This document shows, piece after piece, positions 4,392 through 8,870 of a stretch of 10,345 nt of DNA (positions are counted from its first letter, which is position 1; each line of letters starts with the position of its first letter). Origin of the DNA: Lysobacterales bacterium (GTDB lineage: Bacteria > Pseudomonadota > Gammaproteobacteria > Xanthomonadales > Rhodanobacteraceae); the NCBI GenBank assembly GCA_013298265.1, contig JAAFHE010000074.1, forward strand, positions 1 through 10,345. Reading direction: 5' to 3'. The translations under genes were made by a program, and so were the position numbers. The notes beneath the pieces were generated by a model that saw nothing but the letters and a program-made list of their open reading frames with translations, ran no database searches and was not told the DNA's origin.

Positions 4392-5065
4392 TCAGCGTGT
4401 GCCGAGCACCACGATGGTCTTGCCGGCGACCGTGATCATGCCCTGCTCCTCGAGCTGCTTGAGCACGCGCCCGACCATCTCCCGCGAGCAGCCGACGATG
4501 CGGCTGATTTCCTGGCGCGAGATGCGGATCTGGCTGCCCTTGGGATGGGTCATCGCGTCCGGTTCCTCGGTCAGGTCGATCAGCGTCTTGGCGACGCGGC
4601 TCGTGACGTCCATGAAGGCCAGGCGGCTGACCTTGCGCGAGGTATGCAGCAGGCGGTTGGACAGCTGCGCGCCGATCGCGAACAGGATCTTCGGACATTC
4701 GCTGGCCAGACTGGTCTCGAACAGGTGGAACAGGCGCTCGTAGCTGATCTCGGCCAGTTCCACCGGCGTGCGCGAGCGCACCATGACCTCGCGCCGCGGG
4801 GTTTCCACGAACAGGCCCATCTCGCCGATGAACTCGCCGCGGTTGATGTAGGCCAGGATCAGCTCGCGGCCTTCCTCGTCTTCAGTCAGTACCGTGAGCG
4901 AGCCGTCGATGATGTAGTACAGGATGTTGGCGGAGTCGCCGGGCCGGATGATGGCCGTCTTGCTCGGGTCTCCATGGCGGCGCGGTCCGGCACCAGCATC
5001 GGTGGCGCCTGGACTTTGTTGACGGCCTGTTGCAAGTTGTAACGAAAGTCAGCGATTTTCTGCAT
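4392..5065 (-). pseudogene. clp: Clp/CRP-family transcription regulator, disrupted by an apparent 31-bp deletion and frameshift
   Basis: The 5' part (5065 to 4970) encodes 32 residues from MQKIADFRYN to DRAAME. The 3' part (4967 to 4392) continues in another frame with PSKTAIIRPGD and encodes 191 residues. No stop-free path joins them: the 5' frame stops at 4886, and the 3' frame has no ATG, GTG or TTG before 4820. Xanthomonas Clp has about 11 residues at the gap (a FLAH-HRRRY segment). Restoring 31 bases gives 234 codons against 230 residues in Xanthomonas Clp. The rest looks functional: cyclic-nucleotide beta-roll with GEFIGEMGLF, then the HTH with SRQEIS and GCSREMVGRVL, matching E. coli CRP's DNA-contacting Arg-Glu-Arg, and a C-terminal KTIVVLGTR. 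At the position of CRP Ser83 there is Glu, as in c-di-GMP-responsive Clp. The ATG at 5065 lacks a clear Shine-Dalgarno; an upstream GTG (5173) is less likely. An internal ATG at 4820 could give only a 142-residue fragment lacking most of the sensor domain. Confidence 0.85.
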
Positions 5066-6293: not shown

Positions 6294-8870
6294 ATGTCAC
6301 GCCGTTTGCCCACGACCTTGCTGTGTGCTGCGTTGATGCTCACGATCGGGGCCTCCGCGACGTTCGCCGCGCCCTACCCGCTGCTCAAACTCGAAACCCC
6401 GGCCGACGCCGACGAGGCCGCGCCGGTCGTTCCGCCGGACACGGCCGACGCGGTCGAGCGCAAGATTCACGCCCAGCTGCGCACCGCGACCGGCGGCGAC
6501 GTGGCCGTGCTGCCGCAGATGCTGGCTTCGGACGACAACGTGCTGGTCGAACTGCGTTTCACGGCCGATGCCGGCCTGCAGCGCGCCGAACAGGCCCTGG
6601 GCCGCGCCAAGGCTGAAGTGCGCAACGTGCTGGCCGCCGATCGCATCGAAGCGCGCGTCGCGCGCGGCCAGCTCCATGAGCTCGCCCGCGATGCCGATGT
6701 GGTCAGCATCGTGCCGGCGCGCCTGGTGCGGCCGCGGATCGGCAGCCGCACTACTGAGGGCGTCGCCGCCGGCCGCGCCGATCTGTGGCACGCGAACACG
6801 CCCGCGCTGAACGGCAGCGGCGTGACCATCGCCGTGGTCGACTCCTTCGACGATACCAGCGGCGAGATCAACAGCCTGCAGCTCGCGGCCAACAACAACT
6901 GGCCGCCGGACAGCCGCGTGGTCTTCCAGAACTACAAGACGCTGCCATCGCCGGCTCCGGCCGGGTGTGTCACGAATACTTTCGGCTGCCTCGGCGTCAG
7001 TCACGGCAACGCGACAACCGAAATCGCCTACGACGTCGCGCCCGGCGCGAACTTCCGCGTCTACGACACCTACACCGTCGGTGACTGGCGCCGCGCGATT
7101 CTCGACGCGGCCAACCTCAACAGCTCAGGCGGCTCGGCCGGCGCGGTGCGTGCGCAGGTCATCTCCGCGTCACTGGGTGCGCCGCTCGACGGCAAGGGCG
7201 ACGGCAGTGCGCTGCCGGGTTCCATCGCCGAGGCCGCCGGCTGGGCGCGCAACCGCGGCGTGCTCGTGGTCAATGCCGCCGGCAACGAGCGGCAGCAGCA
7301 TTGGGACGGCCTCTTTCGCGCGTCGTCCACCGGCAACGGCTTCCACACCTGGACCACCGGCGCTAACACCGTCTACAACGTGTTTGGCAACGGCAGCGGC
7401 TCGGCGTACTGCATCCCCGCCGGCGAAACCATCGCCGTTGACCTGTACTGGAACAACTGGGTCTCGCCAGGGGCGAACCGCAACTACGATCTTTACCTGT
7501 ACCGCCGTACCAACGCCTCGACCTGGGAGGCATTGCCCGTCGCGCAGTCCACCCTGATCCAGGGCGGCGGCAGTGGCCAGACGCCGCAGGAACAGATCAC
7601 GTTCACGGCCAGCGGTTCGACGACCGGGTGTGCGGCCAACAGCGCTGTTTTCGGCATCGCCGTGGTACGCGTTGCCGGTACGACAACATTTGAAAATCTG
7701 GAAGTGTTCACTAATATTCCGCTGGACACGCGCGTGACCGCGCGCAGCCTGGGCTTTCCGGCCGATTCGCCGAACGTGCTCAGCGTAGCGGCGATCAACG
7801 TGGCGACAGCGGGCACGAATCCGCAGGAAGCCTTCAGCTCCGAAGGGCCAGTGCTGGCCGCCGGTGGTGGCCTGCCGTCGACGAGCGCGCCGACCGATCC
7901 CAATCTCAAGCCCGACGTCGCGAGCTACGACAACGTCAGCACGGTGAGCTACGGTGTTGGCGGCACCAATCCGATTCCGGCGACGAGTTTCACCGGCACC
8001 TCGGCGTCCACGCCCCATGTCGCCGGCATGGCGGCGCTGCTGATGCAGCGCAACGGCACGCCGACCACGGCCGCACAGCTCGACACGCTGATCCTGACGC
8101 CGCTGCGCAGCCTGGCGGCGACCGGCAGCAATGATCTCGGCACGGCCGGGCGCGACTACCAATACGGCCATGGCCGCGTGCGCTTCCAGCGCGAAACCAC
8201 GCTGGCGTACCTGCAGCAGCCCGCCGCTACCGCAGTCAATACGGCCATCACGCCGGCGGTCAAGGTGCGTGTACTCGACGACGAGGGCCTGCTCGTGCCC
8301 AACGGCCTGCTCGCCGGCGCCAGCATTGCGATCGGCACCGACCCCAATGGCGGTAGCGCGCTGCTCAGCAACGGCGGAACCGCGGCACTGGTGCAGGGGG
8401 TAGCGACCTGGAGCAACCTGAGCATTGATCTCGGCGGCAGCGGCTACACCCTGCGTACGAGCGGCGGCGCTTTGCCGGCGATCAACAGCAGCGCGTTCAA
8501 CATTACGACCGGCGCGGCGAGCGCATTGGCGTTTGCCCAGCAGCCGTCGACCACGCAGGCCGGTACGACGATGGCGACGATCACTGTGCGGGTCGAAGAC
8601 AACAACGGCAACCTCGTCACCAGTGACAACGCCACGCAGGTGCAGCTCACGCGCTCCACCTGCACGGCCAGCCCAGTTCGTGGCGGCGGACCCGTCACGG
8701 CCGTGAACGGAATTGCCACCTTTGCAAATGTGGCTCTATATACGCCGGGCTCCAGCCTGCGGCTGACCGCGAGCGCGCCCGGACGCAGCAGCGACAACAG
8801 CAGCACGTTCACCATCAGTGCAAACAGCAACCTCCTGTTCCGCAGCGGTTTCGAGGCGTGCCTGCCGTAG
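6294..8870 (+). CDS. Secreted subtilisin-like serine protease (S8 family) with two C-terminal Ig-like repeats
   Basis: 858 residues from the ATG at 6294. Residues 1-25 form a Sec signal peptide ending in ATFA. About 26-155 look like a propeptide that inhibits and folds the enzyme. The catalytic domain has Asp183 (IAVVDSF), His237 (SHGNA), oxyanion Asn331 (NAAGN) and Ser570 (GTSASTPHVAGMAALL), a complete triad. About 240 residues separate Asn331 from Ser570, longer than in plain subtilisin; the Tyr/Asn-rich stretch about 345-480 looks like an inserted beta-sandwich. Two tandem Ig-like repeats follow (from about 637 and 743), each opening with a QQP motif and sharing G-A-T-Trp/Phe and S-x-F-x-I positions. 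The protein ends NLLFRSGFEACLP. Expected role: degradation of external protein. The start is uncertain: 6261 and 6282 are also in frame, none has a Shine-Dalgarno, and the codons before 6294 are less GC-rich at third positions. The Asp region also recalls S53-like annotated subtilases. Confidence 0.92.
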   Translation: MSRRLPTTLLCAALMLTIGASATFAAPYPLLKLETPADADEAAPVVPPDTADAVERKIHAQLRTATGGDVAVLPQMLASDDNVLVELRFTADAGLQRAEQALGRAKAEVRNVLAADRIEARVARGQLHELARDADVVSIVPARLVRPRIGSRTTEGVAAGRADLWHANTPALNGSGVTIAVVDSFDDTSGEINSLQLAANNNWPPDSRVVFQNYKTLPSPAPAGCVTNTFGCLGVSHGNATTEIAYDVAPGANFRVYDTYTVGDWRRAILDAANLNSSGGSAGAVRAQVISASLGAPLDGKGDGSALPGSIAEAAGWARNRGVLVVNAAGNERQQHWDGLFRASSTGNGFHTWTTGANTVYNVFGNGSGSAYCIPAGETIAVDLYWNNWVSPGANRNYDLYLYRRTNASTWEALPVAQSTLIQGGGSGQTPQEQITFTASGSTTGCAANSAVFGIAVVRVAGTTTFENLEVFTNIPLDTRVTARSLGFPADSPNVLSVAAINVATAGTNPQEAFSSEGPVLAAGGGLPSTSAPTDPNLKPDVASYDNVSTVSYGVGGTNPIPATSFTGTSASTPHVAGMAALLMQRNGTPTTAAQLDTLILTPLRSLAATGSNDLGTAGRDYQYGHGRVRFQRETTLAYLQQPAATAVNTAITPAVKVRVLDDEGLLVPNGLLAGASIAIGTDPNGGSALLSNGGTAALVQGVATWSNLSIDLGGSGYTLRTSGGALPAINSSAFNITTGAASALAFAQQPSTTQAGTTMATITVRVEDNNGNLVTSDNATQVQLTRSTCTASPVRGGGPVTAVNGIATFANVALYTPGSSLRLTASAPGRSSDNSSTFTISANSNLLFRSGFEACLP

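What the first reader, a model, noticed from the sequence alone, without database searches (positions are those of the whole stretch)
4960..4980. Global regulator clp/crp broken by what looks like a clean 31-bp deletion at a 3-bp microhomology
Seen: conserved N-terminal residues (to DRAAME, ending at 4970) and conserved C-terminal residues (from PSKTAI, at 4967) are in different frames, with two bases where the family has about 11 codons. If the lost segment read Thr-(nine residues)-Tyr-Pro with ACC for Thr and TAC-CCG for Tyr-Pro, recombination between two ACC triplets would give exactly the observed junction ATGGAGACCCGAGC and remove 31 bases. Known: Clp in Xanthomonas is a c-di-GMP-responsive activator of secreted enzymes. 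Inference: loss would rewire many genes, perhaps including the protease 1.2 kb away; or this is a consensus error at a hairpin-prone GC-rich site.
Basis: partly seen in the sequence, partly recalled or inferred. Interest (0 to 1): 0.72.

Follow-up and report, generated by a model that had tools for sequence, protein, structure and literature searches.

The report
Regulator gene broken by assembly gap
A master-switch gene looks cut in two by 31 missing letters, but the evidence points to a badly closed gap in a patchy genome pieced together from environmental DNA rather than to a real mutation.

Summary
On the minus strand, the two halves of a clp/crp regulator gene are out of frame and meet at 4968-4969. 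Exactly 31 nt are absent compared with relatives: 80 of the 80 named loci read have the gene in one frame.

The window is a whole contig of an 833-contig, 87.6% complete genome that groups with genus Tahibacter. The proposed ACC microhomology fails: the first missing codon is Arg or Lys in all 79 loci read, never Thr.

I think it is an assembly error (about 0.8). Contigs appear to be numbered by length, and this one is among 5 of 122 that are too short for their rank. Two of the other four hold a 10-N scaffold gap, one of which stands for 86 nt in 4 of 4 relatives. The same genome has unmarked breaks in two other conserved genes.

Against this: two other out-of-order contigs show no break, the two other broken genes lie on in-order contigs, and frame breaks are no commoner than in relatives. 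No reads were available, so a real, recent loss is not excluded.

The parts
4970..5065 (-). N-terminal part of clp/crp, MQKIADF...DRAAME (start codon inferred)
   Evidence: Translation; matches the named genus relatives' N-termini with few changes.
4968..4969 (-). Junction: two bases stand where relatives have 33 nt, so 31 nt are missing
4392..4967 (-). C-terminal part of clp/crp with stop codon, in another frame (cyclic-nucleotide domain and Crp helix-turn-helix)
   Evidence: P0001, 191 aa; Pfam PF00027, PF13545, PF00325; NCBIfam NF008732 above its cut-off; 97-98% identity to 7 of 7 same-genus genomes.
4392..4820 (-). Longest ORF left of the C-terminal part that has a common start codon (142 aa, ATG)

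Best explanation
The 31-nt loss is most likely an assembly artefact. Two assembled pieces meet inside clp, the short stretch between them was never assembled, and a small placeholder gap (3-13 nt by the length bookkeeping) was closed to nothing, which left a clean but false junction. The organism then carries an ordinary, working Clp. Shown: the break, its size, the intact gene in the relatives examined, the contig's length anomaly, and other unmarked breaks in conserved genes of the same genome. Inferred: that contig numbers are length ranks, that the length anomaly and the junction are one event, and that a gap-closing step did it.
For: (1) In 122 contigs (ranks 41-163 without 61; 1.154 Mb) lengths fall with rank except in 5, and the window is one of them: it lost 3-13 nt after ranking. 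(2) Out-of-order contigs are enriched in 10-N gaps: 2 of 7 contigs with N against 3 of 115 without (Fisher p 0.026; 0.016 leaving the window out). (3) In L183 the 10 N stand for 86 nt in 4 of 4 relatives, so it is 76 nt short, inside the 59-82 nt that its neighbours' lengths allow. (4) The same genome has N-free breaks in an aspartokinase (50 nt short against 3 relatives, 53 against the fourth) and an alanine racemase (38 nt extra against 4 of 4), the latter with a 46-nt, 98% copy of a stretch 419 nt away; family matches of the pieces. (5) The clp codons behind the break show no relaxed selection: 3-6 residue differences from six relatives, dN 0.010-0.022, dS 0.30-0.44. (6) No homology at the deletion ends.
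Against: No reads were seen. Model frame events are no commoner here (9 outside N runs in 1.154 Mb) than in relatives' loci (5 in 0.512 Mb). Two other out-of-order contigs without N (L201, L228) show no frame break, and the alr, aspartokinase and beta-helix breaks lie on in-order contigs; among N-free contigs, break against out-of-order gives p 0.10. The contig lost 3-13 nt after ranking, not 31, so an unrelated end trim plus a real deletion would also fit. Five of the 7 contigs with N are in order.
Confidence: 0.8

Rival explanations
1. A real, very recent 31-nt deletion that inactivates clp in this lineage. The N-terminal helix is lost, the frame shifts, and at most a 142-residue C-terminal fragment could still be made.
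For: The consensus sequence itself; the contig continues with the same gene order as relatives on both sides; no general excess of frame breaks in this genome; 4 of the 61 genomes (G043, G053, G054, G055) have no strong Clp match, so the gene can be lost in the wider order.
Against: 80 of 80 named loci examined are intact, and the gene shows full constraint up to now. The deletion ends share no homology. The contig's length is anomalous. Two further conserved genes of the genome are broken in similar style.
Confidence: 0.16
2. A split but working gene: the C-terminal 142-residue frame (ATG at 4820, ending at 4392) is made as a separate DNA-binding protein.
For: A 142-aa ORF with the whole DNA-binding part is open.
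Against: It starts in the middle of the cyclic-nucleotide domain. The codons between 4820 and the junction, outside that ORF, are as conserved as the rest (97-98% identity over all 191 residues). No locus examined is split.
Confidence: 0.02

Closest known systems
Clp, the CRP-like c-di-GMP-responsive regulator of Xanthomonas
   Same: Best solved-structure match of the C-terminal part is 3iwz, E 2.4e-76, gap-free over 191 residues (deposited as Catabolite activation-like protein, that it is Xanthomonas Clp is recalled). E99, R154 and D170 are kept.
   Different: D70 is E and R166 is K; the gene in this contig is not open. Ligand response in Tahibacter is untested; one search for papers with both Tahibacter and Clp gave 0.
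CRP of Escherichia coli
   Same: NCBIfam NF008732 (CRP) scores 286.6 bits against a cut-off of 266 even on the C-terminal part alone.
   Different: Glu instead of Ser beside the pocket Arg in the alignments (that this Ser contacts cAMP is recalled).
Unmarked small mis-joins in fragmented metagenome assemblies
   Same: Clean indels of tens of bases in conserved genes, shortened contigs, and 10-N runs that stand for longer stretches.
   Different: Reads and pipeline are unknown, so the exact step cannot be named. One paper search on the theme gave a single off-topic listing.

Membership tests
Clp/CRP regulator | cyclic-nucleotide-binding domain and Crp helix-turn-helix | tested here: met
   PF00027, PF13545 and PF00325 on P0001.
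Clp/CRP regulator | Clp-type Glu99 | tested here: met
   Glu at the aligned position.
Clp/CRP regulator | one open reading frame for the whole protein | tested here: not met
   Frame broken at 4968-4969 in this consensus; intact in 80 of 80 named loci.
Clp/CRP regulator | DNA binding that c-di-GMP relieves | not testable with these tools
   Needs biochemistry.
microhomology-mediated deletion | short direct repeat at both ends of the lost segment | tested here: not met
   First lost codon never Thr in 79 loci; no shared base against six named genus relatives by reading.
assembly gap artefact | contig length changed after ranking | tested here: met
   10345 nt stands between 10358 and 10348.
assembly gap artefact | same kind of break elsewhere in the assembly | tested here: inconclusive
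   Unmarked breaks in alr and an aspartokinase, but these lie on in-order contigs, and the rate of model events is not above that of relatives.
assembly gap artefact | drop in read depth or lack of spanning reads at the junction | not testable with these tools
   No reads are held.

The most novel reading that the evidence does not exclude
A wild Tahibacter population has very recently lost its global regulator Clp through a 31-nt deletion without end homology: a natural knock-out of the regulator that in Xanthomonas ties c-di-GMP to secreted enzymes.
Probability: 0.15. Interest if true: 0.35.

Novelty: not a real feature. Interest (0 to 1): 0.1.

Why it matters
Mostly as a caution. A clean, N-free, plausible-looking deletion in a regulator gene of a metagenome-assembled genome can be a collapsed scaffold gap, and the order of contig lengths can hint at this without reads. 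If the loss were real, it would be a natural clp null in a relative of Xanthomonas, useful for asking what Clp controls outside plant disease.

Tried and rejected
Microhomology deletion: rejected. Strong hairpin at the site: only moderate. Second or intact clp copy in the genome: none found, but the 19 contigs under 3 kb that I fetched read as N, so such contigs seem not to be searchable, and completeness is 87.6%. Deletion shared by relatives: none among those examined. The same broken protein in other assemblies: one search with the 59-residue N-terminal piece and its shifted tail gave one hit, an intact relative's fragment. Excess of frame breaks over the whole genome: not supported. The model gives 9 events outside N runs in 122 contigs (and 6 at N runs); by my reading 5 of the 9 are gene boundaries and 4 are breaks: clp, alr, an aspartokinase and a beta-helix protein. 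The 5 events in relatives' loci were not read one by one; one of them, L061, is a frame-split trpD. Control genes in the 80 named loci: 298 whole and 2 frame-split (L047 at a contig end and L061, both metagenome-assembled); 24 other partial matches (trpD 21, trpC 2, speD 1) and all protease matches (6 partial) were left out of that count. Contigs L201 and L228 match relatives only in part, so no break could be sized there. N gaps: L160 and L248 too diverged; the 10 N of L235 stand for about 6-11 nt in three relatives, the fourth (G002) being uninformative. L205, L224 and L251 were not compared. The upper bound printed for L183 (52) was spoiled by another out-of-order contig; 82 comes from its neighbour of 9873 nt. 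In ranks 720-738, 3 of 19 contigs are also out of order, but their letters are withheld. The dN/dS of the N-terminal piece was set in the wrong frame and is not used. In one search the row L006 was in the wrong orientation; only L005 is used. Papers: seen as listings; PMC3749722 and PMC6637768 as passages; one search gave 0 papers.

Full report
What is there. The window is the whole contig C701 of a genome of 4.65 Mb in 833 contigs, 87.56% complete with 1.2% contamination. I take it for a metagenome-assembled genome; that is inference. Of 60 related genomes searched besides its own, seven are of the same genus. Genes in the window include trpD and trpC (by reading), a HAD hydrolase, the broken clp, an S-adenosylmethionine decarboxylase (speD), an S8 protease, coq7 and a protein with CCG cysteine-rich domains.

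The break. The N-terminal part of clp runs from 5065 to 4970 and the C-terminal part from 4967 to 4392 on the minus strand, with two bases between them. Relatives have 11 codons there, so 31 nt are missing. The seventh genus member, G004, is not among the named loci; its aligned stretch is 718 nt against 687 nt here, also 31 more.

It needs a Thr codon ACC at the start of the lost segment. In the 79 loci read the codon is CGN in 76 and AAR in 3. By reading the six named genus relatives, the two ends of the deletion share no base. The fold of the region in these six is moderately strong, at ranks 8-28 of 143 windows. Neither a microhomology nor an exceptional hairpin explains it.

Organism or assembly? 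No reads are held, so I looked at bookkeeping and controls. The contigs seem to be in the lexicographic order of names 1 to 833, with names given by length; this is inferred from the lengths. I took the contigs of ranks 41-163 except rank 61: 122 with the window, 1.154 Mb. Lengths fall steadily except for five that are shorter than a later rank: the window (by 3-13 nt), L160, L183, L201 and L228. Seven of the 122 hold one run of exactly 10 N; two of these are out of order, against three of 115 without N (Fisher p 0.026, or 0.016 leaving the window out). A loss of 13 nt would show in only 28% of contigs, so in-order contigs may have been shortened too. In L183 the 10 N stand for 86 nt in 4 of 4 relatives, so the contig is 76 nt short, inside the 59-82 nt that its neighbours' lengths allow. 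There at least, shortening after ranking happened at a scaffold gap. The window, shortened and without N, fits a small gap that was closed to nothing. If the 31 nt themselves had been cut out after ranking, the contig would have ranked two places higher, so they were probably never in the assembly.

Other breaks. I wrote a three-periodic coding model with frame-shift states, trained on 439 long ORFs of the fetched contigs. It finds the clp break and no other in the window. Over the 122 contigs it gives 9 events outside N runs and 6 at N runs. On reading the 9, five look like gene boundaries and four like breaks: clp, an alanine racemase, an aspartokinase and a beta-helix protein. The two alr pieces match positions 2-181 and 196-363 of TIGR00492, and the aspartokinase pieces match 4-138 and 161-243 of NF006959; as pieces, all but the second alr one score below the families' cut-offs. 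Against relatives, the aspartokinase lacks 50 nt in three of four and 53 nt in the fourth. The alr has 38 nt too many in four of four and holds a 46-nt, 98% copy of a stretch 419 nt away. I find such lesions in three conserved genes easier to explain as joining errors than as biology.

What goes against that. The event rate is no higher than in relatives' loci (9 in 1.154 Mb against 5 in 0.512 Mb). L201 and L228 are out of order and N-free, yet show no frame break. The alr, aspartokinase and beta-helix contigs are in length order, and among N-free contigs the link between break and out-of-order is weak (p 0.10). The window lost 3-13 nt, not 31, so an unrelated trim plus a real deletion would also fit.

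Selection. The 191 codons behind the junction differ from six relatives by 3-6 residues, with dN 0.010-0.022 and dS 0.30-0.44. The relatives differ among themselves by 1-6 residues, with dN 0.002-0.024 and dS 0.14-0.64. The gene was under constraint until the break, if there was one; this fits an artefact and a very recent loss alike.

Other copies. No second clp is found in the searchable contigs. The fetched contigs under 3 kb read as N, so this is not proof. One protein search with the 59-residue piece that crosses the junction gave a single hit, an intact relative's fragment.

What the gene would do. Clp of Xanthomonas binds promoters without a ligand, and c-di-GMP binding prevents this (PMC3749722, passages). 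PMC6637768 (passages) lists D70, R154, R166 and D170 for c-di-GMP and E99 among others for promoter binding, and names D70 and E99 as key for c-di-GMP in the Xanthomonas oryzae protein. The protein here has E, R, K, D and E at 70, 154, 166, 170 and 99 (numbering from the gap-free alignment to 3iwz). So a c-di-GMP response is plausible but untested.

Verdict. The biological reading is probably wrong: about 0.8 for a wrongly closed assembly gap, about 0.16 for a real recent loss.

Noticed in passing
L203 (G000:C9) near 975: An alanine racemase gene is broken by 38 extra nt against 4 of 4 relatives and contains a 46-nt, 98% copy of a stretch 419 nt away; looks like a joining or gap-filling error.
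   Followed up: partly
L234 (G000:C43) near 2767: An aspartokinase gene lacks about 50 nt against 4 of 4 relatives (50 in three, 53 in one) without any N.
   Followed up: partly
L163 (G000:C368) near 10509: A beta-helix-type protein (my reading) changes frame in mid gene.
   Followed up: no
G043, G053, G054, G055: 4 of 61 genomes have no strong Clp match (best E 2e-8 to 1.9e-4, while the next weakest is 2.4e-72), so the regulator seems absent in parts of the wider order.
   Followed up: no
L061 near 5625: trpD of a Dokdonella metagenome-assembled genome is frame-split.
   Followed up: no
window 8832-8870; L141; L160: The S8 protease ends in LLFRSGFEACLP. Two of 3069 open frames of 150 codons or more in the other contigs end in a similar F-x-x-G-F-E tail, and 0 have it at mid-frame; possibly a sorting tail.
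   Followed up: partly
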